A stretch of 64,000 bases of DNA, taken from contig NZ_CP022161.1 of NCBI RefSeq assembly GCF_002214185.1, positions 7,385,486 through 7,449,485 of the forward strand. The letters run 5' to 3'. The notes below the pieces were generated by a model. That model searched no databases. It was not told the origin of the DNA and saw nothing but the letters and a program-made list of their open reading frames with translations. How positions within the stretch are numbered: position 1 is the first letter of the stretch; the number at the start of each line of letters is the position of its first letter. A program made the translations under genes and the position numbers. The DNA comes from Streptomyces capitiformicae (lineage in GTDB: Bacteria; Actinomycetota; Actinomycetes; Streptomycetales; Streptomycetaceae). Of the stretch, positions 1 through 11,520 are shown piece after piece.

Positions 1-1828
1 GTGGGAGGTGCCCGCGATCCGGGCCGACCTCGCACTGGCCGGGCATGCCTACGACGAGGCCGCCGCGCATGCCCGGCAGGGGCTCGCCGCGTTCGAGGAG
101 CACCGCCGCAGGCTCGCCCGTGACGCCCTGCGCGCCTCGTCGGCCGACGACTTGATCATCGCCGGGCTCCAGCACGCCGCCGTGCTCGCCCTGCTGTCGT
201 CCGGCGGCCCCGACGCGGCAGCCGCCGCTTTCGACCAGGCCGAACGCGGCCGCGCCGGCTTCCTCGACGCCGTCCACGCCCTCGACACGGCCACCGCCGG
301 GCCGCCGACCGCCCGCGCGGCGGTACGCGACTGGCTTGCCGCCGAGGTCCGCTGGTCGGCCGCGTTCGAGGAACGGGCGGCCGAGATCCGCCGCCGGGCG
401 GACCCGGAACGTACGGACGCGCCGACGGTGACATGGGCGGCCGACCCGGAACAGGCACAGGCGCACATCGGCGAGGTGGAACAGGCCCTGGACGCCGCCG
501 AGTCGGAGGTACGGCGGCTCGCTCCCGCATCGCTGAGCGCCTCGCCCACCGCCTTGCATACTTCCGTGCACGCCGCCTCCCACGACTCCGCACTGCCGAA
601 CGCGGCGTCCGTGGCCGAGGCGCTGCCCGAGGACGCCCTTCTGCTCACCTATCACGTCTTCGACGACATCCTCGTCGGCTGGGCGATGACCCGTGAGGCG
701 CTGGTTCACGAGCGGTTCACCCGGCGGCCGCACACCACGGTGGCGGCGGCCCGGCGCTTCCGCGACTGGTGCGCGCTGGCGGACGCCCACGGGGACGACC
801 ACGGCGGTGCGGCGGCGGGGCGGGACCTGGCCGACGACCTGCTGCGGCCCTTCGCCGCAGCGCTGCGCGATCACCGGCGGGTGATCGTGGTGCCCCCGGC
901 CGCGTTGGCCCTGCTGCCGTTCCACGCGCTGCCCTGGAACGGTGACGTCCTCGGCGCCGGCCACGACGTGTCGTACCTTCCCGCGGCCTCCCTCCTCACC
1001 CGGCGCCACCGGCAGCCGCCGGAGCGGCCCTGGACCGAGCTGGACGCCCTACTGGTCGGCGCTCCCGCGAGCGATCCCCGCCATGGCCTGCGGGAGCTGC
1101 CGGGCACCGCCGCCGAAGTCGTCGAAGCCGCCCGGTTGTTGCCCCGGGGGCGGGCGCTCACGGGGGCCACCGCCACCCGCGACGAGGTGCTGAGGGCGGC
1201 GCGCGGATGCGGCGTGCTGCATCTCGCCACCCACGGGCTGGTCGACGAACTCGCCCCGAACCGCAGCCGGTTGCCCCTCGCCGGGGACGACGTCCTCGGC
1301 CTCGCCGACCTCCTGGCCGTCGCCCACGACCCCCAACTGCTGGTGCTGTCCGGCTGCGACACCGGACGGGGCACCGCCACCGCCGGCGGAGATGTACTGG
1401 GCCTGACCCGAGCCGCCCTGATCACCGGCGCCCGGCACGCGGTCGTCTCGCTCTGGCCGGTCGGCGACGCCACCGGCTGCCTCGTCCTGGCCCACACCTA
1501 CCGGCATCTGACCGCGGAACCCTTGCCCACCGCGCCCGTCGTGTCCCTCGGCGCGGCGCTGGCCAGGGCGCAGCGCGAGGTACGCGACATGTCCGGCGCC
1601 GAGCGGTACGAGGAGTTCCGCGAGCTCACGCGGAGGGCCGAGGTCCATCCGGGCCCGGCCTCGCGTGCCCGCAGCCGGGCCGGAAATCCTTGGGACTCCA
1701 GGGACTCCAGGGACTCCAGGGACTTCAGGGACTCCAGGGACTTCAGGGACTCCGCACCGCTCCGTCGCCGCGAGGCAGACCACCGGCACCCGTACCACTG
1801 GGCGCCCTTCATCCACGTAGGGGTGTGA
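1..1828 (+). CDS. TPR-CHAT caspase-like protease, 5' end outside window
   Basis: The frame is open to the window edge. The first internal start (GTG at 8) has no spaced ribosome binding site, so this is the C-terminal part of a longer protein. The visible part opens with TPR-like helices, followed by an AERGRA helix typical of the end of TPR arrays in CHAT proteins. The CHAT domain follows. Its likely dyad is His409 (in LHLATHG) and Cys450 (in LSGCDTG), numbered from codon 8. The conserved C-terminal HPYHWAPF motif is present, so the protease core looks intact. A DSR/DFR repeat sits just before that motif. The stop lies 1 nt before the caspase gene, so the two are probably co-transcribed. CHAT proteins act as peptidases in bacterial conflict and cell-death systems; the target here is unknown. 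Confidence 0.85.
1694..1753 (+). repeat. 9-bp in-frame tandem repeat in CHAT gene
   Basis: Six full copies and one partial copy of GACTCCAGG (two variants GACTTCAGG) encode Asp-Ser/Phe-Arg triplets. They form a charged insertion near the end of the CHAT domain. The period is a multiple of three, so copy-number change would keep the frame. Confidence 0.9.
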
Positions 1829-1829
1829 G

Positions 1830-3860
1830 ATGACGCTGCGAGCGGTGCTGATCGGCGCCGAGACCTACGGCCTGACCGGCGTCCACACCGATGTCGAGCT
1901 GATGGGCGAACTGCTCACCGGACACGGCTTCACCGACATCCGGACCCATACGGGCGACCGGGCGGGCTACGCGCGCATCAAGGGAGCGTTGAGCGCACTC
2001 CACGCGGATGCCCGCCCCGGTGACGGCCTCGTCGTCTACTACTCGGGGCACGGGGCGCTGCTGGGGGAGCTGCAGTGCCTGGTGCCTGTCGACATGGCCG
2101 ACAGTACGGACACGGACTTCCGCGGCTATCTGGCCGAGGAACTCACCGCCGCCGTCCGCGCGCTCACCGAGAAGACCTCCAACGTCACCGTCGTCCTCGA
2201 CGCCTGCCACTCCACCGGGGCCGTGCGGGAGGCGGCGTACGAGGCGGGCCGGTCGGCGCTGAGGTCGGTGGAGGTGGCGCTGGAACGAAGCGTGTGGGAC
2301 GCGGGGTTCGCCCGGCTGAAGAGCCTGTCCGGCTCCCGTGAGCCACTGGTCCCCGGCGTCGTACGGCTGACGGCGTGCCAGCAGCACGGTTCGGCGTACG
2401 AGGCCGAACTGCGGCCGGGGGCCGGTCGGCAGGGCGTGTTCACCGCCGCCCTCGCCGAGGTGCTCGGCACGCGGCAGGGCCGGGACCTGCCCTGGTCCGT
2501 CCTCATCACCCGGATCCGGGACCTGGTCAAACAGCGCCAGGTACAGCAGCGGCCCGACGCCGGCGGTCCTGCGGGGCGGCTGCCCTTCTCCCTGACGGAA
2601 CCACCCGCACCGGAACGGCTTCCGCTGCTGCGAAGGGAGGGGCGGTTCGTCGTACCGGGCGGTTCGGTGTTCGGCCTGGGGCGGGGGGACACGGTGTCGA
2701 TGTCGTTTCCTTCCGGGTCCGATCGGTCCGATCGGTCCGACGAGCCCGCCGGGTCCGACGAGCCCGCCGGGTCCGCCGGGTCCGCCGGGTCCGCCGGGTC
2801 CGACGAGCCCGCCGGGTCCGCCGTGCGGGAACTCACGGTGTCCGCGGTCGTGGACGCGATGTGGGCGGGGGACGCGGTTCTCCGGGTGGAGCCGCCGACC
2901 GGCGCCCTCTCCGCCGCCGCGCCGTCCGCCGCCGAACTGCTCACCTCGGCGCTGCCGCCCGGTGCGTACGCGCTCCCGGTGACGGTCCACGACCGCCGGC
3001 ATGTGTTCGTCGACGCCGACACCGACGGCCCCTTCGTCGACGCGCTGCGCAAGGAACTGGAGGGCTGCCCTCGGCTCGCCGAGACGAGTCGGGTCCAGGA
3101 CGCCTTCGCCACCGTGCGCGTGCGGCCGTACGGCGATGCGGAGGTGCTGGACCGCGAGGGACGCCCCTTCCGGGAGCCGCCGAGCGGTGTCCGGCCCGAC
3201 CCGGCCGGGCTTGCCGCGCTGCTGGACGAACTGGCCAGGGGCGAGCGGGTACGGCGGCTGGCCGATCCCGAGGGCGCGGCCCTGCTCGACGCCGTGCCGG
3301 AGGTCCGCTTCGAGATCGAGGACACGGCCCGCAGCGACAACTGGCGGCCGTGGAAGCGGACGGGCGTGCCCGTGTACGACGGCGACCGTTACCGGGTCAC
3401 CGTGGCCAACCGCTCCGACAAGCCCCTGTACTTCTGGGTGATCGGCGTGGGACTGAGCGGCCGTGTCGAACTGGTCACGAACGATCAGCCCAGCGGCTGT
3501 CGGGCCGAACCTCACGGAGCCCCGGCCCTCAGCACCCGTGTCACTCCTCCGGTGGAGATCTACTGGCCCCCCGACGTCCCCCGGCACGGACCGCGACCCG
3601 AGACGGTGCACGTCCTCGTGGGCGATCGACCGATGGACCTCGGCGGGCTGAGCTCGCCCGCCCGCCAGGGGGTCTCGCGCAAGGCCGACCCGGACCTGAA
3701 CACCCTGCTCCGGGAGCTCTGGGACGGCGTACGCGACCAACGGCCCCTCGGCGGCGAGGAGTTCCACTACCGGGTGTGGTCGGTGCATGCCGACGCCTTC
3801 CCCCACACGCGAAACCACGCGGAAAACCCCATGGGAAACCACACGGGACCCGGCCGCTGA
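1830..3860 (+). CDS. Caspase-family (peptidase C14) protein
   Basis: 676 aa. An N-terminal caspase p20-like domain (about residues 1-250) carries the dyad His74 (YYSGHG) and Cys126 (LDACHS), in the usual order for caspases and metacaspases. A linker of Gly-Ser-Ala, Ser-Asp-Arg and Asp-Glu-Pro repeats spans about residues 296-331. The C-terminal region (about 490-600) alternates strands in a way that resembles DUF4384-type domains seen after bacterial caspases; this is a weaker call. It starts with ATG 1 nt after the CHAT stop. The pairing suggests a proteolytic cascade in which one protease activates or processes the other, but that is inference. No transmembrane segment or signal peptide is evident. 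A strong hairpin overlaps the stop codon. Confidence 0.88.
2715..2822 (+). repeat. 9-bp in-frame tandem repeats in caspase linker
   Basis: A mosaic of TCCGATCGG units (Ser-Asp-Arg) and TCCGCCGGG units (Ser-Ala-Gly), interrupted by three GACGAGCCC (Asp-Glu-Pro) segments. It forms the flexible linker between the protease domain and the C-terminal region. Confidence 0.9.
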
Positions 3861-3877
3861 TGCCCGGCCGGGTCCCG
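3844..3877 (+). terminator. Hairpin terminator overlapping the caspase stop codon
   Basis: A perfect 13-bp inverted repeat (CGGGACCCGGCCG at 3844-3856, complement at 3865-3877) with an 8-nt loop that contains the TGA stop. There is no U-tract, as is usual for Streptomyces terminators. Confidence 0.7.
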
Positions 3878-4065
3878 CGTGTCCCCCTGTGGCACCCAGC
3901 ATGCGCGTCCCAGGGCCGCCCCTTCCGCGCAGCGGTGCGGAATTCGGCGGGCGGCTTCATGATGGGAGCGAACCGATGGGAATGACAGGTGCGGGGTGGC
4001 CGCACGGCACGTTCCTCGCGGAACTGTCCGGACGGCGAAGAACTTCTCCTCCGTCGCCTGGATCC

Positions 4066-4170
4066 GACCCGTGTCTGTGCCACGTGTGTCTGTGCCACCC
4101 GTGTTTGTGCTACCCGTGTCTGTGCTACCCGTGTCTGTGCTACCCGTGTCCGTGCCACCCGTGTCTGTGC
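4066..4170. repeat. 15-bp tandem repeat between convergent genes
   Basis: Seven copies of a 15-bp unit (consensus TACCCGTGTCTGTGC, 1-3 substitutions per copy) fill much of the 322-bp gap 3861-4182, between the caspase stop and the YbjN-like gene's stop. I see no gene in the rest of this gap. The array could be read as pentapeptide repeats on either strand, but no start with a ribosome binding site supports that. Confidence 0.9.
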
Positions 4171-4182
4171 CGAGCGCGTCGC

Positions 4183-4671
4183 TCACAGGTGACACTCCCG
4201 GTGGCACCAGGTGAACAGACTCCGGGCGTCCTTGAGCCACCGGTCGGCCATGGCGCGGAACGCGCTCCGGGTGATCCGGCAGGTCAGGGGCAGGGTGCTG
4301 AAGCCCATCAGGTACGGGGGCTGCTCCCCGGCGAGGTTGCAGATGGACATGACCGGGGCGAGCCGCTCGATGTTCCAGGCGTTCGCGGCGGCGGCCGCCA
4401 CCGCCAGCTGGTCCGGCTTCAGATACCGGTCGTCGGTGGCCATCACCAGCAGCATCTCGGTGTTGGTCGTGGTGAAGCCGAGCTGGATCCTCCGCTCGGC
4501 CTCGGGCAGCTCGAACTCCACGCCGACCGAGGACGCGTCCGCCTCGTACGGGCGGTGCTGACGCATCACCCAGTCATTGACCAACCGCCGCCAGTGGGCG
4601 GCCAGCTCGACCGCCTGCTCCGACGACGGAGGCGGAGACGGGGAATACGGGGTCGGGTCAGATCCTGGCAT
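4183..4671 (-). CDS. YbjN-like domain protein
   Basis: 162 aa, last of a three-gene minus-strand group. The stretch with NAWN, followed later by a strand rich in PLTCRIT and a closing helix, resembles the YbjN / type III secretion chaperone-like fold, a small protein-binding alpha/beta domain. This is a moderate-confidence match by eye. The N-terminus is a short Pro/Ser-rich tail. ATG 4671 has a GGGAGG ribosome binding site 9 nt upstream, and the first 14 bp overlap the end of the Hsp70 gene, so translation is probably coupled. A natural guess is an adaptor or cofactor of the Hsp70-like protein, but nothing in the sequence shows the partner. It is a cytoplasmic protein with no membrane segment. 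Confidence 0.6.
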   Translation of the reverse strand: MPGSDPTPYSPSPPPSSEQAVELAAHWRRLVNDWVMRQHRPYEADASSVGVEFELPEAERRIQLGFTTTNTEMLLVMATDDRYLKPDQLAVAAAAANAWNIERLAPVMSICNLAGEQPPYLMGFSTLPLTCRITRSAFRAMADRWLKDARSLFTWCHRECHL

Positions 4672-5932
4672 GGCGCGCGGCCTCCCTCACCATCTCGTCG
4701 GTCAGCCCGGCCGCCAGCAGCGCCTTGACCTTGACCGGTAGCGGCCGCGGCGGCACGGGTGGGGAGTCCTTCAGGGACAGGGGCGCGGTCGCCACCCGGG
4801 TCGGGCCGATGCCCCGGGCCAGCCAGGCAGCTCCGGTGGCCACCGCGAGTTCGGGTTCGGAGACGGTGAGGACCGTCCGGCCCGAGCGCTCGAAGAGCAG
4901 GTCGCCGACCATGGGGAGCCGGGAGCTGCCGCCCACGGGGACGATCAGGTCGAGGTCGTCCCACGCCAACCCATGGGCCCGGAGCACCCGTTCGCACTCC
5001 TCGACCGTCTCCGCCAGCAGGGGCCGTACGGCGTCCCGCAGATCGGCCCGGGTCAAGGTGACCTCGGTCGGCGGGTCCAGCATGGTCAGCAGGTCGGAGT
5101 GCTCGGAGGAGACGGACAGCTGCTGCTTGAAGGTCGTGCAGGCCTCGGCGAGCAGGATCGCCCGGCGCAGCGCCGCCGGATCGTCGGACTCCGCGGCGGC
5201 CTGCCGCAGCGCGTCCACCGCGTCCGGGCAGCGTTCCCGTACGAGGCCCAGCACGGCCTGGTCGATGGCGAGCCCGCCGACGTCCGACAGCCCGCCCGGG
5301 GAACCGAGGACCGCGAAGCCGTCCTTGTTCCCCTGGGCCACCGCGAGGTCGAACGTGCCGCCGCCGAGGTCGTAGACGAGGACCGTGCGCTCCCGGTCCA
5401 TGCCGTGGTCGTGCAGGGCGTAGACGGTGGCGGCCACGGGTTCGCTGTGCACCTCGACGATGTCCGGCGGCAGTCCCGCGGCCCCGGCGGCGGTGAGCAT
5501 CAGCTCGCGCCGGTGGCCCTCCCAGGTCGCCGGGACCGTGATCACCACCCGGGAAGGGGCCGCGTCGACCGCCGTCCGCGCCTGCTCGACCAGGAAGGCG
5601 AGCACCGCCGTGGTCAACTGCTCGGTGGTGAAACGGCGTTCGCCGAGCTGGTGCGGGGACGTCTCGCCGAACTCCCGCTTGAACTCGGCGCGGAACCGTT
5701 CCGGGCGCTGCAACCGCGAGTTCTGCGCGGCCTGGCCCACCACCAGCGATCCGTCCGGGAGCAGGCACACGGCACTGCGCACCGAGGTGGCGCCGTACGG
5801 GCTCACCGGGTCACGCACCGGCAGCGGTGGGTGGCCCGGCCGGAGTACGACCAGGGCGGACGTCCAGGTGCCGAAGTCGATCCCGTACACCGGGCCTGTC
5901 GCCTGGCGGTCGCCGCTCATGTCGCCGCTCAT
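4658..5932 (-). CDS. Hsp70-family ATPase, nucleotide-binding domain only
   Basis: 424 aa. It shows the actin/Hsp70 ATPase motifs in order: phosphate 1 (IDFGTWTS, near residue 20), VITVPATW, phosphate 2 (YDLGGGTFDLAV, about 195) and the adenosine motif (PVGGSSRLPMV, about 335). The frame ends about 70 residues later. There is no room for the roughly 200-residue substrate-binding domain and lid of DnaK, so it is not a housekeeping chaperone. The ATG overlaps the upstream stop (ATGA); a second ATG 12 nt downstream is also possible. DnaK-like ATPases without a substrate domain occur beside CHAT, caspase and NTPase genes in bacterial conflict loci, so a sensor or switch role is possible but unproven. 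Confidence 0.85.
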   Translation of the reverse strand: MSGDMSGDRQATGPVYGIDFGTWTSALVVLRPGHPPLPVRDPVSPYGATSVRSAVCLLPDGSLVVGQAAQNSRLQRPERFRAEFKREFGETSPHQLGERRFTTEQLTTAVLAFLVEQARTAVDAAPSRVVITVPATWEGHRRELMLTAAGAAGLPPDIVEVHSEPVAATVYALHDHGMDRERTVLVYDLGGGTFDLAVAQGNKDGFAVLGSPGGLSDVGGLAIDQAVLGLVRERCPDAVDALRQAAAESDDPAALRRAILLAEACTTFKQQLSVSSEHSDLLTMLDPPTEVTLTRADLRDAVRPLLAETVEECERVLRAHGLAWDDLDLIVPVGGSSRLPMVGDLLFERSGRTVLTVSEPELAVATGAAWLARGIGPTRVATAPLSLKDSPPVPPRPLPVKVKALLAAGLTDEMVREAARHARI

Positions 5933-6930
5933 GGGGTGTCGAACTGGTCGGGGTCGAAGGAGGAACCGAGGTCCGCGTCCGTGGTGGTGCCGAAGTCGTC
6001 GGCGGTGGCCGTCACGGGAGTGGCGGTGACGGGAACCGAGTCGGTCGGGGCGTCGACCGGCGTGGCGTCCGCGGCCGTGACATCGGGGCTGGGGCCAGGG
6101 CTGGGGCCGAGGCTGCTGAACGCCGCCCCCATGGCGACCTCCGCGCCGACGCCGAGGGCGATATCCTTCGCGGCCGACCCGGCCGACCCGGCCGACCCGG
6201 CCGACCCGGCCGACCCGGCCGACCCGGCCGACCCGGCCGACCCGGCCGACCCGGGGACGACCGTCAACGCCTGGTCCACCGCCTCTCGCACGGTGGGCGC
6301 CGTGAACGCCGCCGAGATCAGCGCCGCCGCCCACATTGCCCCGCAAACCCCGTTGCCGGTGTGCGACAGCACCGCGTCGCGGCGGGCCAGCGAGGCCGCG
6401 CGACGGGGCGCGCCCGGGCAGGTCCAGCCGTGGACGTCGGCCCGGATGAGGGCGCCGATCCACTCCTGGTAGGGGTTGTCGTACGTGGCGGTCAGCGGCG
6501 GCTTCAGACCGTTCACCAGGTTGCGGTAGGCCGCCCGTTCCGCCGTGAAGGTCTGCAGATACGGCAGCCGCAGCAGCCACAGGTCGCCGACCTGCTCGGT
6601 GCTGAAGCCGAAACCGTGCGTCTCCAGGAGGTGCAGGCCGAGGATCGCGTAGTCGACGTCGTCGTCGCGGCAGCTGCCGTGGATACGGCCGCGTACGCAC
6701 TGCCTCCACTCGGGGCGCATCGCGAGCGCGTCGCTCTCGTCGGCCGGCTCCGGGAGATAGTCGGTCAGGGGCAGGGCATCGGCCTGCCGCAGATAGCGGT
6801 CGATGCGCCCCCGCGTCCAGTGGTCGCCCTGCTCGACCGGCTTCCCGAGCATGTTGCCCGCGATCCGGCCCAGCCAGCCCCCGAGAACGCGGTCGGCGAG
6901 TTCGGTGCCCACAGGGGTCATGGGGGTCAT
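5929..6930 (-). CDS. ADP-ribosylglycohydrolase-like protein, C-terminal half missing
   Basis: About 333 aa. Residues 11-225 follow the ADP-ribosylglycohydrolase family: GGWLGRIAGNMLGKPVE at the start, a metal-binding acidic run RDDDVD at 88-93, and SHTGNGVCGAMWAAA near 190. At about residue 227 the homology ends in eight Gly-Ser-Ala triplets, followed by an 80-residue Ala/Thr/Pro/Asp-rich tail. Family members of this subtype that I remember run to about 450 aa and carry a G-G-x-D-T-D metal motif near the C-terminus; none is present here. The protein may be inactive, or kept for binding ADP-ribosylated targets. Start: ATG 6930 chosen, ATG 6921 equally possible. The stop overlaps the Hsp70 start by 3 bp (ATGA). 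Confidence 0.75.
   Translation of the reverse strand: MTPMTPVGTELADRVLGGWLGRIAGNMLGKPVEQGDHWTRGRIDRYLRQADALPLTDYLPEPADESDALAMRPEWRQCVRGRIHGSCRDDDVDYAILGLHLLETHGFGFSTEQVGDLWLLRLPYLQTFTAERAAYRNLVNGLKPPLTATYDNPYQEWIGALIRADVHGWTCPGAPRRAASLARRDAVLSHTGNGVCGAMWAAALISAAFTAPTVREAVDQALTVVPGSAGSAGSAGSAGSAGSAGSAGSAGSAAKDIALGVGAEVAMGAAFSSLGPSPGPSPDVTAADATPVDAPTDSVPVTATPVTATADDFGTTTDADLGSSFDPDQFDTP
6176..6252 (-). repeat. 9-bp in-frame tandem repeat in ADP-ribosylglycohydrolase-like gene
   Basis: Eight full copies plus a partial copy of GACCCGGCC on +. Read on the coding strand the unit is GGGTCGGCC, giving (Gly-Ser-Ala)8. It differs by one base from the GGGTCCGCC unit in the caspase gene, which lies on the opposite strand. 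Confidence 0.92.
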
Positions 6931-7102
6931 GGCTGAAGGTCTACCCGATTCCGGGCGGGGGCGCTCGGGTACGGCGCCGGCGTATTCCCGTGGTGTTCGG
7001 CGGGCGGCCCGCGGCATGGCGGACGGGGCCCGGGGCGGTTAGGGTCGCAGCGGCGCGACTGCCTTGACGTGCGCAAGGCCCGATGAGCGAGGGGAATGCA
7101 AG

Positions 7103-8272
7103 GTGGCGAACGCCGCTGTGGACGGGATCGACGCTGAGAGGGCAACTCCGCGGGTGCTGATCGCCGCGGACAAGTTCAAGGGCACGCTGACGGCCGTCCA
7201 GGTCGCCGAGCGGGTCACGGCGGGCCTGCGCCGGGTGCTGCCCACCCTGGAGGTCGAGGCGCTGCCGGTGGCCGACGGGGGCGACGGCACCGTGGCCGCG
7301 GCGATCGCGGCCGGATTCGAACGCCGCGAGGTACGGGTCGCCGGCCCGTTGGGCGAGCCCGTCACCGCCACGTACGCGCTGCGCGGCGACACCGCCGTGG
7401 TCGAGATGGCCGAGGCCAGCGGGTTGCAGCGGCTGCCCGCCGGGGTCTTCGCGCCGCTCACGGCGTCGACGTACGGGTCCGGGCAGCTGCTGCGTGCCGC
7501 GCTGGACGCCGGTTCCCGCACGATCGTGTTCGGTGTCGGCGGAAGCGCGACGACGGACGGCGGCGCGGGCATGCTCGCCGCGCTCGGGGCGCGTTTCCTG
7601 AACGCCGCCGGTGAGCCGGTCGGTCCCGGCGGCGGGGGCCTGCGTGACCTGGTGACGGCGGACCTGTCGGGCCTCGACGAGAGGTTCGCGTCGATCGACT
7701 TCGTCCTGGCGAGCGACGTCGACAACCCGCTGACGGGTCCGAAGGGCGCGCCCGCCGTGTACGGGCCGCAGAAGGGCGCGAGCCCCGAGGACGTCGCGAC
7801 GCTGGACGCGGCGCTGGCCCACTTTGCGACCGTCCTGGAGACGACGCTCGGCGGCCGTGCCGCCGAGCACGCCATCGCCCCCGGCGCGGGCGCCGCGGGC
7901 GGCATCGGCTACGGCGCCCTCATCCTCGGCGCCCGCTTCCGCCCCGGCATCGAGGTCATGCTGGACGTCCTGGGCTTCGCGGCGGCTCTGGAGAAGGCGA
8001 CCCTCGTCATCACCGGCGAGGGCTCCCTGGACGAACAGACCCTCCACGGCAAGGCCCCGGCGGGCGTCGCGGCGGCGGCCCGAGCCGCCGACAAGGAGGT
8101 CGTAGCGGTCTGCGGCCGCTTCGCCCTCCCTCCGGAGGCGCTGGGGCGCGCCGGCATTCGCCGCGCCTACCCGCTCACCGACGCCGAACCCGACATCCAG
8201 CGCTGCCTCGCAGACCCGGGCCCGATCCTGGAGAACGTGGCGGAACGGATCGCCCGGGACTTCCTGACCTGA
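7103..8272 (+). CDS. Glycerate kinase (type GlxK/GarK)
   Basis: 389 aa. It phosphorylates D-glycerate (GarK family, usually forming 2-phosphoglycerate), channelling glycerate from glyoxylate or photorespiration-like routes into glycolysis. Family landmarks are ADKFKGTLTA near the start, PVADGGDGT, and GVGGSATTDGGAGML in the middle; length matches the family. The start is GTG 7103, with GAGGGGA 7 nt upstream. Upstream in-frame codons back to 7064 are open but lie outside the conserved domain. It stands alone on +, facing pssA; the 345-bp gap holds dispersed repeats and hairpins. The EMC operon 7 kb away releases glyoxylate, which could be a source of its substrate, but a functional link is inference. 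Confidence 0.9.
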   Translation: MANAAVDGIDAERATPRVLIAADKFKGTLTAVQVAERVTAGLRRVLPTLEVEALPVADGGDGTVAAAIAAGFERREVRVAGPLGEPVTATYALRGDTAVVEMAEASGLQRLPAGVFAPLTASTYGSGQLLRAALDAGSRTIVFGVGGSATTDGGAGMLAALGARFLNAAGEPVGPGGGGLRDLVTADLSGLDERFASIDFVLASDVDNPLTGPKGAPAVYGPQKGASPEDVATLDAALAHFATVLETTLGGRAAEHAIAPGAGAAGGIGYGALILGARFRPGIEVMLDVLGFAAALEKATLVITGEGSLDEQTLHGKAPAGVAAAARAADKEVVAVCGRFALPPEALGRAGIRRAYPLTDAEPDIQRCLADPGPILENVAERIARDFLT

Positions 8273-8280
8273 CGAGGTTT

Positions 8281-8340
8281 CCTCGCCCCGCCGCCCCTAC
8301 CCGTCCCATCCCAGGGGCTGCCGCCCCTTCGACCCCGCTT
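8281..8340 (-). repeat. Dispersed repeat, family 2 (partial copy)
   Basis: Read on the minus strand, this block shares AGCGGGGTC and, after a divergent middle, the run GATGGGACGGGTAGGGGCGG with 57312-57364. It lies 8 bp after the glycerate kinase stop. Confidence 0.7.
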
Positions 8341-8409
8341 GGGCGCCTGAGAGCTCGGGGGGTCGGGTGTGTTGGCGGGTGCGGGTTGTGTGTGGTTGTT
8401 CGCGCAGTT

Positions 8410-8533
8410 CCCCGCGCCCCTGAAAGAACTGGGGGCACCCCCTGGCTTTTGAGGGGCGCGGGGCTGTGTCGATATGCGGCTCCGCCGCGTGGGCGCGACC
8501 AGCCCCGACCCACCCGCACTCGCCGAACGAACC
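8410..8533 (+). repeat. Dispersed hairpin repeat, family 1, copy 1
   Basis: Matches the reverse complement of 30111-30212: about 72 bp from AACTGGGGGC through GTGTCGATATGCGGC to GTGGGCGCGA, then a shared GCACTCGCCGAAC. A 12-bp perfect inverted repeat, 8410-8421 with 8452-8463, encloses smaller hairpins. The copy sits in the convergent gap between glycerate kinase and pssA, so it may terminate transcription in both directions. Confidence 0.85.
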
Positions 8534-8563
8534 GCTCCACCCCCTTCCTCATGCGCCCAAACA

Positions 8564-8599
8564 GTAGGGCCCCGAACCCACCCGGGTCCGGGGCCCTAC
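8564..8599 (-). terminator. Terminator of psd-pssA
   Basis: An 11-bp perfect stem (GTAGGGCCCCG, 8564-8574, with 8589-8599) lies 18 bp downstream of the pssA stop on the minus strand. Confidence 0.75.
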
Positions 8600-8617
8600 C
8601 CAGCACTCAGCGGAGCG

Positions 8618-9490
8618 TTACGGCTGTGCCGCCCTGGCCTCGCGCCTGTTGTCGCGGAAGTTGTTCACTCGGCGCGCCGTGGCGAACAGGGGGATCACCG
8701 CGCCCATGACGAGCTGCAGGGCGCAGCCGGTCTGGAGGAGGAGCTGGCCGCCGGGGGCGTCGAAGGCCCAGGCCGCCAGGAGGCCCATCGCGAGGACGAT
8801 CCAGGAGAGCATCGCGACCGCGAGGGGACCCCGCGGCTTCGGGTACTCGACGCGGCTCACCATCAGCCACGCGGTGCCGACGATGGCGAGGAGGGTCGCC
8901 ACGAAGGGCAGCTCAAGAAGGACGATCGAGACGACCGTCAGGGCCCCGAAGGGGGACGGCATGCCCTGGAACATGCCGTTCGTCGGCGTCACACAGGAGA
9001 ATCTCGCGAGCCTCAGCACCACGGCCAGCAGGACGACGATCGCCCCCACCGCCGCCACCCGCTGGTGCGCGTCGTCCGCGACCATGCCGTAGACGAGGAC
9101 GAAGTACGCCGGCGCCAGGCCGAAGCTGATCAGGTCGGAGAGGTTGTCCAGCTCCGCGCCCATCGGCGAGGAGCGCAGCTTGCGCGCGACCAGGCCGTCG
9201 AACAGGTCGAAGATCGCCGCGCACAGCATCAGGATCACGGCGGTGGCCGCGCTGTGGCGGGCCATGCCCGTCTCCTGGCTGCCGGTGAGGTGCGGGATCA
9301 GGATGCCGGTGGTGGTGAAGTACACCGCCATGAAGCCGCACGTGGCGTTGCCCAGGGTGAGCGTGTCCGCTATTGACAGGCGGAGCGACAGCGGCATTTC
9401 CTCCGCGTCGTCCACGTCCCCGCTGCGCTCTTCTGCCTCGGTCACCCAGCCGGTCTGGCCGGTCTGGGTCTCCGGATCAACCACGGTCAA
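8618..9490 (-). CDS. pssA: CDP-diacylglycerol-serine O-phosphatidyltransferase
   Basis: 290 aa membrane enzyme that joins CDP-diacylglycerol and L-serine to phosphatidylserine, the precursor of phosphatidylethanolamine. The CDP-alcohol phosphotransferase signature is visible as DGLVARK...GAELDNLSD at about residues 99-120, inside a run of seven to eight hydrophobic helices. An acidic N-terminal tail of about 40 residues precedes the first helix, and the C-terminus is basic. The start overlaps the end of psd by 14 bp, so the two are translationally coupled, and their products act consecutively. A perfect hairpin follows the stop. The same gene pair sits next to the EMC operon in Streptomyces genomes I recall. 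Confidence 0.93.
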   Translation of the reverse strand: MTVVDPETQTGQTGWVTEAEERSGDVDDAEEMPLSLRLSIADTLTLGNATCGFMAVYFTTTGILIPHLTGSQETGMARHSAATAVILMLCAAIFDLFDGLVARKLRSSPMGAELDNLSDLISFGLAPAYFVLVYGMVADDAHQRVAAVGAIVVLLAVVLRLARFSCVTPTNGMFQGMPSPFGALTVVSIVLLELPFVATLLAIVGTAWLMVSRVEYPKPRGPLAVAMLSWIVLAMGLLAAWAFDAPGGQLLLQTGCALQLVMGAVIPLFATARRVNNFRDNRREARAAQP

Positions 9491-10133
9491 TGCGAGTCAC
9501 CCCAGCCACGGTTTTCTGTCCCACCTCGACATCGACCTCGACACCCTCGGGCAGATAGATGTCGACGCGCGAACCGAAGCGGATCAACCCGATCCGGTCA
9601 CCCTGCTCGACCTTGGTGCCCTCGGGGATGTACGGGACGATACGGCGCGCGACGGCGCCGGCGATCTGGATCATCTCGATGTCACCGAGCTCGGTGTCGA
9701 AGTGCCAGACGACACGCTCGTTGTTCTCGCTCTCCTTGTTGAACGCCGGGACGAACCCGCCGGGGATGTGCTCCACCGACGTGACCGTGCCGGAGAGCGG
9801 CGCGCGGTTCACGTGGACGTTCAGCGGGCTCATGAAGATCGCGACGCGGGTGCGGCCGTCCTTCCACGGCATGATGCTCTGCACCACTCCGTCGGCGGGC
9901 GAGATGACCCGGCCCTGGGCGATCTCACGCTCGGGGTCGCGGAAGAACCACAGCATGCCCGCCGCGAGCGCGGTGGCGGGTACGGCCACGGCCCGGGCGA
10001 CGCCGGAGCGGCGGGAGCGGGCGAGACTGAGGGCTGCGGTGGCGACGGTCGGGAGAAGCCACGGCGATGCTCCGCGCGCGAGGCGTACGCCTACTCGGCT
10101 GTCGCGTGGTGCAGAGGTTTGGCTGTGGGGCAT
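9477..10133 (-). CDS. psd: Phosphatidylserine decarboxylase (short form)
   Basis: 218 aa. It decarboxylates phosphatidylserine to phosphatidylethanolamine. It is the short proenzyme type: one hydrophobic N-terminal segment (about residues 45-65), ISPADG, then SPLNVHVNR, and the self-cleavage site Gly-Ser in IRFGSR, where the Ser becomes the pyruvoyl group. ATG 10133 is the first start before the membrane segment. It is the first gene of psd-pssA; the upstream 125 bp to the hairpin at 10259 should hold the promoter, though no clear -10/-35 pair was identified. Confidence 0.92.
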   Translation of the reverse strand: MPHSQTSAPRDSRVGVRLARGASPWLLPTVATAALSLARSRRSGVARAVAVPATALAAGMLWFFRDPEREIAQGRVISPADGVVQSIMPWKDGRTRVAIFMSPLNVHVNRAPLSGTVTSVEHIPGGFVPAFNKESENNERVVWHFDTELGDIEMIQIAGAVARRIVPYIPEGTKVEQGDRIGLIRFGSRVDIYLPEGVEVDVEVGQKTVAGVTRIDRG

Positions 10134-10258
10134 GGATGACCTTCGTAGCGGACGATGCCGCGCGGTGACAGGGGACGGCGGCTTTTCTCAGGATCGTACC
10201 GGTCGCGGCCCGCAACTGGGTAAGGCAGGAAGACGAGTCGACGGCCGAAGAGTGCTGA

Positions 10259-10293
10259 CGGGGTGTGATCTTCTTCTCGAAGAAAACACCCCG
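10259..10293 (-). terminator. Terminator of the EMC operon
   Basis: A long hairpin with stem CGGGGTGT/ACACCCCG (10259-10266, 10286-10293) and an inner stem TTCTTC/GAAGAA (10271-10276, 10279-10284). It lies 21 bp beyond the stop of the last EMC gene and upstream of psd, so it should insulate the two operons. Confidence 0.75.
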
Positions 10294-10314
10294 AAACGAA
10301 CATATTTCCCGGCG

Positions 10315-11520
10315 TTAACCCTGGAATCGATACTCTTCGAGCAGCCTGCGGCCGATGATCATTTTCTGGATTTCGGCGGTACCTTCGCCGATCAGCAGCA
10401 TCGGTGCCTCGCGGTAGAGGCGCTCGATCTCGTACTCCTTGGAGAAGCCGTAACCGCCGTGGATCCGGAAGGCGTCCTCGACGACTTCTTTGCAGTATTC
10501 GCTGGCCAGGTACTTCGCCATTCCTGCTTCGAGGTCGTTTCGTTCCCCGGAGTCCTTTTTGCGTGCTGCGTTCACCATCATGGCATGGGCGGCCTCGACC
10601 TTGGTAGCCATCTCGGCCAGCTTGAACTGGATCGCCTGGTGCTGGGCGATCTGCTTGCCGAAAGTGTGCCGCTGCTGGGCGTACTGGACCCCGAGTTCGA
10701 ACGCGCGCTGCGCGACACCGCAGCCACGGGCCGCCACATTTACGCGCCCGACTTCCACGCCGTCCATCATTTGGTAAAACCCTCGGCCGGTGACGCCGCC
10801 GAGTACACGATTGGCCGGAATGTGTAGTCCGTCCATGATGAGTTCGGTGGTGTCGACGCCCTTGTAGCCCATCTTGTCGATCTTCCCGGGAATGGTGAGG
10901 CCGGGGCGGACCTCTCCGAAGCCGGGCTCCTTCTCGATCAGGAAGGTCGTCATCGACTTGTGGGGTGCCGTGCCCTCGGGGTGTCCTTCGTCACTTCGGA
11001 CGAGAACGGCGACCAACGTTGACGTCCCGCCGTTCGTCAGCCACATCTTCTGACCGTTCAGGACGTACTCGTCGCCGTCCTTGACCGCCTTCGATGTGAT
11101 CGCCGACACATCCGAGCCAAGGCCCGGCTCCGACATCGAGAAGGCGCCCCGGATCTCGCCGAGCGCCATCTTCGGCAGGAAGTACTCCTTCTGCTCCTCG
11201 GTGCCGTGCTGCTTGAGCATGTACGCCACGATGAAGTGCGTGTTGATGATCCCCGAGACGGACATCCAGCCCCGGGCGATCTCCTCCACGCACAGCGCGT
11301 ACGTGAGGAGGGACTCGCCCAGACCGCCGTACTCCTCGGGGATCATCAGACCGAAGAGGCCCAATTCCTTGAGGCCGTCGACGATCTGCTGCGGGTACTC
11401 GTCGCGGTGCTCCAGCTCCGTCGCGACCGGGATGATCTCCTTGTCCACGAAGTCCCGGACGGTGGACAGGATCTCCTGCTGGATGTCGGTCAGCCCGTGG
11501 GTCTGGGCGAGTCGTGCCAT
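10315..11520 (-). CDS. Acyl-CoA dehydrogenase, probable methylsuccinyl-CoA dehydrogenase of the EMC pathway
   Basis: 401 aa FAD enzyme. The family elements are FSMSEPGLGSDVS and MWLTNGG in the middle beta domain, GVGRGF-like loops, and the C-terminal IHGGYGFSKEYEIERLYRE ending in LIGEGTAEIQ, with the presumptive catalytic base nearby. As the last gene of the EMC operon it should oxidise (2S)-methylsuccinyl-CoA to mesaconyl-CoA. The proteobacterial Mcd I remember is about 550 aa with an N-terminal extension that is absent here, so the substrate is inferred from context. ATG 11520 lies 2 nt after the stop of the MaoC gene; codons upstream to 11703 are open but overlap that gene. Confidence 0.85.
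   Translation of the reverse strand: MARLAQTHGLTDIQQEILSTVRDFVDKEIIPVATELEHRDEYPQQIVDGLKELGLFGLMIPEEYGGLGESLLTYALCVEEIARGWMSVSGIINTHFIVAYMLKQHGTEEQKEYFLPKMALGEIRGAFSMSEPGLGSDVSAITSKAVKDGDEYVLNGQKMWLTNGGTSTLVAVLVRSDEGHPEGTAPHKSMTTFLIEKEPGFGEVRPGLTIPGKIDKMGYKGVDTTELIMDGLHIPANRVLGGVTGRGFYQMMDGVEVGRVNVAARGCGVAQRAFELGVQYAQQRHTFGKQIAQHQAIQFKLAEMATKVEAAHAMMVNAARKKDSGERNDLEAGMAKYLASEYCKEVVEDAFRIHGGYGFSKEYEIERLYREAPMLLIGEGTAEIQKMIIGRRLLEEYRFQG

What the first reader, a model, noticed from the sequence alone, without database searches (positions are those of the whole stretch)
1..6930. CHAT + caspase + Hsp70-ATPase + ADP-ribosylglycohydrolase-like + YbjN-like locus
Two different cysteine protease-like genes with intact His/Cys dyads are adjacent (1-nt gap) and converge on a three-gene coupled group: a glycohydrolase-like protein, an Hsp70 nucleotide-binding domain without a substrate domain, and a YbjN-like small protein. 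Caspase, CHAT and stand-alone Hsp70-like ATPases recur in predicted bacterial conflict/programmed-death systems, but I do not recall this set as a named system. A model: the Hsp70-like protein, with the YbjN-like adaptor, senses a signal and releases the CHAT protease, which activates the caspase.
Basis: partly seen in the sequence, partly recalled or inferred. Interest (0 to 1): 0.8.

Follow-up and report, generated by a model that had tools for sequence, protein, structure and literature searches.

The report
Dynamin-and-Hsp70-switched CHAT–caspase protease island
This Streptomyces-type locus carries a CHAT protease and a caspase directly behind a dynamin-like GTPase, an Hsp70-like ATPase and a conserved third protein, a set predicted to act as a self-destruct or defence switch, while the opposite-strand "glycohydrolase" gene is a fusion of a truncated housekeeping gene with the tail of a gene from a second, scattered cassette.

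Summary
The CHAT/caspase pair (1-nt gap, intact dyads) and the coupled minus-strand group are there, but the five-gene reading is wrong in composition. Upstream, one plus-strand series reads: dynamin-like GTPase, SrfB/Hsp70-like ATPase, protein X, CHAT, caspase. GTPase–SrfB–X recurs in this order in 17 of 17 actinobacterial loci examined (three by linkage only). The minus-strand Hsp70 and small genes end a second cassette, in S. caniscabiei dynamin–C39-like–GrpE–unknown–dynamin–Hsp70–small protein. CHAT–caspase occurs with cassette I (L014, L015), cassette II (L048, L050) or both (own genome, S. caniscabiei and, divergently, S.PB5). Here cassette II lies in three chromosomal places; the "glycohydrolase" ORF is an N-terminal ADP-ribosylglycohydrolase piece, a (Gly-Ser-Ala)n array and the last 81 residues of dynamin 2, and its orthologues sit beside glycerate kinase in 7 of 8 relatives. 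A 1.96-kb deletion removed a Crp-like regulator and another gene. Closest published kind: NTPase-switched conflict systems (Kaur et al. 2020), where terms for this core do not occur. Defence or death function is inferred; most triad loci lack a recognised caspase. Assembly chimerism cannot be excluded.

The parts
1..1828 (+). 3' part of the CHAT protease gene. The gene starts at about window -2233 (L009:9253). Upstream on the same strand lie X (about L009:7844-9157), the SrfB/Hsp70-like ATPase (L009:4281-7838) and the dynamin-like GTPase (about L009:1572-4256)
   Evidence: window position = L009 position minus 11486
1830..3860 (+). caspase (C14) gene, 676 aa, His74/Cys126 dyad; predicted caspase fold plus a C-terminal region
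   Evidence: Foldseek best: metacaspase 4 and MALT1 paracaspase, E about 2e-10
3995..4081 (.). deletion scar: 36 bp of the start of a Crp-like regulator gene (3995-4030, 94% identity) and 48 bp of the end of a 443-aa gene (4034-4081, 85%), which are about 1.96 kb apart in S. caniscabiei
4067..4171 (.). 15-bp tandem array, 7 copies, mostly an insertion (4082-4176) relative to S. caniscabiei
4183..4671 (-). small protein, 162 aa, last gene of cassette II; only weakly YbjN-like
4658..5932 (-). Hsp70 nucleotide-binding-domain-only ATPase, 424 aa, with ATP motifs DFGT, DLGGGT and GGSSR
5929..6930 (-). chimeric ORF: ADP-ribosylglycohydrolase N-terminus (about 6256-6930), (Gly-Ser-Ala)n array, and the last 81 codons of dynamin-like protein 2 (about 5932-6174)
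6171..6254 (.). 9-bp tandem array (9.3 perfect copies), the fusion point; bases 6171-6253 recur at 100% identity at G000:C1:10882627-10882709, where the rest of dynamin 2 lies
7064..8272 (+). glycerate kinase, the ordinary chromosomal neighbour of the glycohydrolase; marks the end of the island

Best explanation
The locus is a composite island in which a dynamin-like GTPase, an SrfB/Hsp70-like ATPase and a conserved protein X are encoded directly upstream of a CHAT protease and a caspase, and it likely works as an NTP-driven switch that would unleash a CHAT-to-caspase protease relay and kill or arrest the infected or stressed compartment. Shown: gene order, dyads and NTP-binding motifs in this genome's proteins, conservation of GTPase–SrfB–X in order, and recurrence of CHAT–caspase next to this triad, next to a second cassette (dynamin 1, C39-like, unknown, dynamin 2, Hsp70, small protein, with GrpE in two genomes), or both. 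Inferred: the dynamins and actin/Hsp70-fold ATPases form a nucleotide-dependent assembly, perhaps at the membrane, that senses a trigger and sets a threshold; the CHAT protein is released or activated; it processes the caspase; the caspase cleaves cell proteins. In this genome only cassette I is intact next to the proteases. Cassette II is split over three chromosomal places, and its Hsp70 and small protein are left behind a chimeric glycohydrolase ORF.
For: Domains: Dynamin_N E 2e-8; HSP70 8e-6 and SrfB 9e-4 (below SrfB's cut-off); CHAT 1.4e-48; caspase 1.8e-17. SrfB-like proteins keep D212, G214, T215, D542, G544 and G546 invariant in 13 aligned sequences (own, L011 and 11 of the 19 proteins). 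Triad order in 17 of 17 actinobacterial loci with enough flank: 14 by direct tblastn with this genome's proteins, 3 (L022, L028, L029) only by single-linkage clustering. A gammaproteobacterial locus has the order GTPase (Dynamin_N 1.5e-4, below cut-off) – SrfB-like – 447-aa protein. CHAT plus caspase near the triad in 4 of the 17 loci (L012, L013/L042, L014, L015) and in the own genome; L017 shows a caspase at its edge. CHAT–caspase next to cassette II in both caspase-positive genomes among 90 other same-genus genomes. Hsp70 and caspase orthologues share contig length and strain name in 6 of 20 Hsp70 clusters P0020-P0039. GrpE in cassette II of S. caniscabiei (PF01025 1e-6; PDB GrpE 4ani 0.009) and, at 1.53 Mb, in the own genome. 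Dynamin 2 matches the anti-phage dynamin models LeoA (1.5e-19) and LeoBC (3.5e-16). Neighbours in several loci include kinase-like, PP2C, vWA, tubulin, DO-GTPase2-like and CHAT-WD40 genes, the vocabulary of Kaur et al. 2020 (PMC7159879; sections 27 and 29 and term passages read).
Against: No functional data exist. In 12 of the 17 triad loci no caspase was recognised within the fetched flank (L018 ends at a contig edge; L020, L021 and L023 have a CHAT-WD40 gene instead), so the triad may have another main job. Caspases beside the triad in L013, L014 and L017 are only about 30-34% identical to the window's. With the motif patterns used, the caspase His motif but no Cys motif was found in L014, L042 and both L052 caspases, the CHAT Cys motif was not found in L014, and neither CHAT motif was found in the L020, L021 and L023 CHAT-WD40 pieces; the L022 GTPase shows no P-loop and the L048 Hsp70 no second phosphate motif. 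GrpE was not called in L042, L048 or L050. CHAT-activates-caspase has no direct support. No mobile context: no SrfB match in 72,556 plasmid records or in the viral contigs. Protein X has no recognisable family.
Confidence: 0.53

Rival explanations
1. The dynamin–SrfB–X triad is a membrane- or cytoskeleton-remodelling machine with a housekeeping or developmental role, and CHAT–caspase is an independent cargo that sometimes lands beside it.
For: No caspase was recognised in 12 of 17 triad loci; tubulin, vWA and kinase genes accompany it in Actinoplanes L022 (Pfam) and, by gene family, in L028 and L029; GTPase–SrfB occurs in a gammaproteobacterium. Makarova and Koonin 2010 (PMC2875224, passages seen) proposed membrane remodelling for tubulin–vWA–kinase–GTPase operons.
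Against: CHAT–caspase follows the triad directly on the same strand in two genomes (own, L012) and a few genes further in L015, and also sits with the separate dynamin–Hsp70 cassette; dynamin 2 resembles anti-phage LeoA.
Confidence: 0.27
2. One reading: Hsp70 NBD plus YbjN-like adaptor (with a glycohydrolase) directly control CHAT and caspase as a five-gene unit.
For: Hsp70 and the small protein sit near CHAT–caspase here and in L041, L048, L050 and, divergently, L042.
Against: The glycohydrolase ORF is a truncated housekeeping gene fused to a dynamin tail; in all four of these relatives Hsp70 comes with two dynamins, a C39-like and an unknown gene; CHAT–caspase occurs in genomes without a close Hsp70 orthologue.
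Confidence: 0.06
3. Chance accumulation of unrelated genes in a rearranged region of a scrambled or mis-assembled chromosome.
For: Cassette II pieces lie at 1.53, 7.39 and 10.88 Mb, with in-frame chimeric ORFs.
Against: The plus-strand series keeps the gene order of S. caniscabiei, including the FAD/NAD-binding oxidoreductase-like gene before it, and CHAT–caspase recurs with either cassette in several genomes.
Confidence: 0.1

Closest known systems
GTPase-centric (DO-GTPase/GAP1-N2) conflict systems, Kaur et al. 2020 (PMC7159879)
   Same: NTPase switch plus accessory HSP70 with GrpE, an HSP70 lacking the peptide-binding domain, tubulin, kinase/PP2C/vWA sets; peptidase domains in related systems; actinobacteria (sections 27 and 29 read)
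   Different: Core here is a dynamin-like GTPase, an SrfB-like ATPase and X; no DO-GTPase or GAP1 hit among the island's proteins. 'SrfB', 'dynamin', 'YbjN' and 'ADP-ribosylglycohydrolase' have 0 occurrences in that paper's main text
EACC1–caspase two-gene system, Kaur et al. 2020
   Same: Caspase-domain protein in actinobacteria; NCBIfam caspase_w_EACC1 matches at 5.7e-15
   Different: 55.4 bits against a cut-off of 140; the 5' neighbour is CHAT
LeoA/LeoBC dynamin pair (anti-phage system Eleos; the name Eleos is recalled)
   Same: Cassette II has two dynamin-like proteins; dynamin 2 matches LeoA 1.5e-19 and LeoBC 3.5e-16
   Different: The two dynamins are separated by other genes and sit with Hsp70, GrpE (two genomes) and proteases
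srfABC operon (SrfB, PF07520)
   Same: SrfB-like ATPase next to a large GTPase and a third protein (that SrfC is a GTPase is recalled)
   Different: SrfB hit is below cut-off; the GTPase has no PF10139 hit at E <= 0.1; I recall no CHAT or caspase in srfABC (PMC6950479 seen only as a listing and a term search without passages)
TPR-CHAT / Csx29 (Craspase)
   Same: CHAT protease with a large N-terminal region; weak NCBIfam hit 0.0024
   Different: No CRISPR protein was recognised among the neighbours scanned

Membership tests
DO-GTPase/GAP1 conflict system | DO-GTPase plus GAP1 gene | tested here: not met
   None of the island's proteins hits DO-GTPase or GAP1 models in Pfam at E <= 0.1; a DO-GTPase2-like gene (1.4e-5, below cut-off) was found in L020
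DO-GTPase/GAP1 conflict system | HSP70 with GrpE, sometimes an NBD-only HSP70 (one of its themes, about 14% of GAP1-N2 neighbourhoods) | tested here: met
   GrpE (PF01025) and NBD-only Hsp70 in cassette II of S. caniscabiei; in this genome GrpE lies at 1.53 Mb; GrpE not called in L042, L048, L050
EACC1–caspase | Caspase over the NCBIfam cut-off | tested here: not met
   55.4 against 140 bits
Caspase (C14) | Caspase domain with His/Cys dyad | tested here: met
   64.3 bits against cut-off 21.4; H74 and C126 invariant in 38 aligned rows; fold match to metacaspase/MALT1
CHAT protease | CHAT domain with His/Cys dyad | tested here: met
   166.3 bits against cut-off 24; HLATHG and LSGCDTG in this genome's protein
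SrfB (PF07520) | Match over the family cut-off | tested here: not met
   17.8 bits against 27.1 in the own protein; some relatives carry a precomputed PF07520 label
YbjN (PF10722) | Match over the family cut-off | tested here: not met
   No hit for the window protein even at E <= 10; best family member E 0.0015; hhalign probability 0.2%
ADP-ribosylglycohydrolase (PF03747) | Full domain including its C-terminal third | tested here: not met
   Profile 1-194 of 287, then array and dynamin tail; intact orthologue L055 covers 1-287
LeoA/LeoBC anti-phage pair | Two dynamins, one LeoA-like and one LeoBC-like | tested here: inconclusive
   Dynamin 2 matches both models; dynamin 1 only a short stretch of LeoA (7e-7); no activity tested

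The most novel reading that the evidence does not exclude
An unnamed family of bacterial conflict systems in which interchangeable mechanoenzyme–chaperone cassettes (dynamin–SrfB–X, or dynamin–dynamin–Hsp70 with GrpE) act as triggers for one CHAT-to-caspase protease relay: a bacterial death pathway whose switch is a dynamin/Hsp70 assembly instead of a STAND or MoxR–vWA ATPase.
Probability: 0.4. Interest if true: 0.78.

Novelty: new variant of a known kind. Interest (0 to 1): 0.58.

Why it matters
It would tie dynamin-like GTPases and Hsp70-fold ATPases, protein machines of membranes and proteostasis, to a two-protease death module in multicellular bacteria. It gives SrfB-like proteins a repeatable genomic setting (GTPase–SrfB–X) in actinobacteria. 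It also shows how a tandem-repeat fusion can make a housekeeping gene look like a system component.

Tried and rejected
ADP-ribosylglycohydrolase as a component: rejected (truncated, chimeric, orthologue next to glycerate kinase in 7 of 8 relatives).

YbjN identity: not supported beyond weak E-values.

X as homologue of the third gene of the gammaproteobacterial locus: hhalign 0.2%, not shown.

Plasmid or virus origin: no SrfB match in plasmids or viral contigs; caspase matches in plasmid records: 7, all below 60% identity.

Literature: ten searches showed in their capped listings no paper describing this set; most hits were unrelated, and subscription journals and bioRxiv are not held, so this is no proof of absence. 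PMC7159879: outline, sections 27 and 29 and term passages. PMC8195603 and PMC2875224: term passages only. PMC6950479: listing and a term search that returned no passage.

Repeat enrichment as a mark of the system: not specific. L020, L021, L023 and L026 have 2-4 arrays in 19-23 kb and L017 three.
Full report
Observation. Window 2-1828(+) is the 3' part of a CHAT gene and 1830-3860(+) a caspase gene, one base apart. Both dyads are present in these two proteins. Caspase H74 and C126 are invariant in 38 aligned rows, the window plus 37 of the 75 proteins. The predicted caspase structure (mean pLDDT 80.6) matches metacaspase 4 and MALT1 at E about 2e-10. On the minus strand three ORFs overlap by 4 and 14 nt: 6930-5929, 5932-4658 and 4671-4183. 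The middle one is an Hsp70 nucleotide-binding domain without a substrate domain.

Upstream of the window. The window lies at G000:C1:7385486-7449485 of a 10.99-Mb single-contig genome; no call names it, but its nearest named homologues are Streptomyces. L009 shows, on the same strand and before CHAT, a dynamin-like GTPase (about L009:1572-4256), an ATPase of about 1185 aa with HSP70 (8e-6) and sub-threshold SrfB (9e-4) matches, and a protein X without any family. CHAT begins at about L009:9253, behind a plausible ribosome-binding site.

Cassette I is widespread in actinobacteria but not common. An SrfB-like gene was found in 1 of 30 other genomes around the window's. A scan of the GTDB genome collection with an SrfB alignment gave 19 loci. 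Of these, L016 is a 3.3-kb contig and L030 is gammaproteobacterial; in the remaining 17 the order GTPase–SrfB–X holds on one strand, 14 by direct tblastn of this genome's proteins and 3 (L022, L028, L029) only through single-linkage blastp families. A further relative, L011, shows parts of GTPase and X around SrfB on a short contig. L030 has a GTPase (Dynamin_N 1.5e-4, below cut-off), an SrfB-like protein and a 447-aa third gene in that order; the third is not detectably homologous to X.

Output module. CHAT plus caspase lie near cassette I in the own genome, L012, L014, L015 (a few genes further on) and, on the other side and divergent (caspase 31% identity), in S. sp. S.PB5 L013/L042; L017 shows a caspase at the locus edge. 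In the other 12 of 17 loci no caspase was recognised within the fetched flank; Pfam was run on selected proteins only. L020 carries CHAT-WD40, M48 peptidase, kinase-like, PP2C, vWA and DO-GTPase2-like genes, partly shown by Pfam and partly by gene family, and L021 and L023 carry the same gene families. L022 carries tubulin, vWA and kinase genes, and L028 and L029 the same families. With the motif patterns, the caspase Cys motif was not found in L014, L042 or L052, the CHAT Cys motif not in L014, and neither CHAT motif in the L020, L021 and L023 CHAT-WD40 pieces or in L042_12; these were not examined further.

Cassette II. Among 12 chosen genomes (own and 11 with a triad), the Hsp70 orthologue occurs in 3: own, S. 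caniscabiei (79%) and S. sp. S.PB5 (84%); the others have only Hsp70-family matches of 31-36%. In S. caniscabiei the genes read dynamin 1, C39-like, GrpE, unknown (195 aa), dynamin 2, Hsp70, small protein, convergent to cassette I–CHAT–caspase–Crp-like–443-aa gene (the Crp-like assignment comes from the 79% orthologue in L049). Among 90 other genomes of the window's genus, 2 hold a caspase match at E <= 1e-40, and in both it sits with CHAT next to cassette II, with no cassette I gene in the stretches fetched; in L048 a kinase-like, a PP2C and a weakly vWA-like gene lie between. GrpE was not called in L042, L048 or L050. Nonomuraea L052 has a divergent caspase, an Hsp70-like gene and two dynamins in one run, with another caspase and CHAT-like and DO-GTPase-like genes nearby. 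In protein-database listings, 6 of 20 Hsp70 clusters (P0020-P0039) share strain and contig length with a caspase cluster. Dynamin 2 matches the anti-phage models LeoA and LeoBC.

What happened in the window. The last 81 residues of the "glycohydrolase" align to the tail of dynamin 2 (51% identity, E 7e-20). The N-terminal part is orthologous (79-89%) to a gene present in 8 of the 12 other genomes, next to glycerate kinase in 7 of those 8, exactly the window's own next gene. The rest of dynamin 2, with the 195-aa gene, is at 10.88 Mb, fused in frame through the identical 9-bp array to polyketide synthase domains. Dynamin 1, C39-like and GrpE are at 1.53 Mb, where the GrpE ORF runs into a 12-bp array before the gene order is lost. 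The glycohydrolase C-terminus is at 8.126 Mb, fused to a sensor-kinase ORF. Between caspase and the small gene, bases 3995-4030 and 4034-4081 match sequences about 1.96 kb apart in S. caniscabiei, so most of the Crp-like and 443-aa genes was deleted, and no other good copy was found in this genome (best matches elsewhere span 36-105 bases); a 15-bp array was expanded next to the scar. Six arrays of 4 or more copies (unit 6-30 bp) lie in the 16.9-kb island and none in the other 57 kb of the window. L012, L013, L042, L015, L048 and L050 have none in the stretches tested, L041 and L014 one each, L017 three, and L020, L021, L023 and L026 two to four in 19-23 kb. Whether the dispersal is biological or an assembly fault cannot be settled here.

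Mechanism. NTP-binding motifs (with the exceptions L022 GTPase and L048 Hsp70) and the recurrent pairing of a switch cassette with CHAT–caspase suggest, by analogy with Kaur et al. 2020 (PMC7159879, sections 27 and 29 and passages read), a thresholding assembly that releases a protease effector. Trigger, order of proteolysis and outcome are inference. Protein X was modelled from a relative (L014 sequence, pLDDT 83.5) without a convincing fold match; it may be the constant third component, analogous to GAP1 or VMAP by position only.

Verdict.

Noticed in passing
window 1692-1753, 2713-2823, 4067-4171, 6171-6254; L009:1676-1719, 10130-10179: Six 9- or 15-bp tandem arrays of 4 or more copies crowd this island and none lies in the other 57 kb of the window; one is a fusion point and one lies beside a deletion scar.
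   Followed up: partly
L072 (G000:C1:10874000-10891000), 7282-10593 minus strand: Dynamin 2 (residues 1 to about 616) fused in frame through (Gly-Ser-Ala)n to polyketide synthase KR and carrier domains; the next ORF fuses PKS domains to DUF3987.
   Followed up: partly
L070:8557-10998 (G000:C1 about 8.126 Mb): Sensor-kinase ORF fused to the C-terminal end of the glycohydrolase, upstream of the gene that follows it in relatives.
   Followed up: partly
L073:8436-8540 (G000:C1 about 10.502 Mb): Third fragment of the glycohydrolase (residues 192-226, 91% identity), ending where the window's copy enters the repeat.
   Followed up: partly
L020, L021, L023: Triad loci with kinase-like, PP2C, vWA, M48 peptidase, DO-GTPase2-like and CHAT-WD40 gene families: a possible second effector set (Pfam run on some L020 and L015 members only).
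   Followed up: partly
L022, L028, L029: Actinoplanes and Micromonospora triads with tubulin-like, vWA and kinase gene families (Pfam run on L022); the L022 GTPase lacks a recognisable P-loop by the pattern used.
   Followed up: partly
L052 (Nonomuraea gerenzanensis): Two caspases, an Hsp70-like gene, two dynamins, a CHAT-like and a DO-GTPase-like gene in 32 kb, in a record filed as a plasmid of 11.85 Mb, probably the chromosome.
   Followed up: partly
L015:14542-15456: Fourth gene of several triad loci is an APH/kinase-like protein that matches PADLOC model STK_OB at 1.1e-48.
   Followed up: no
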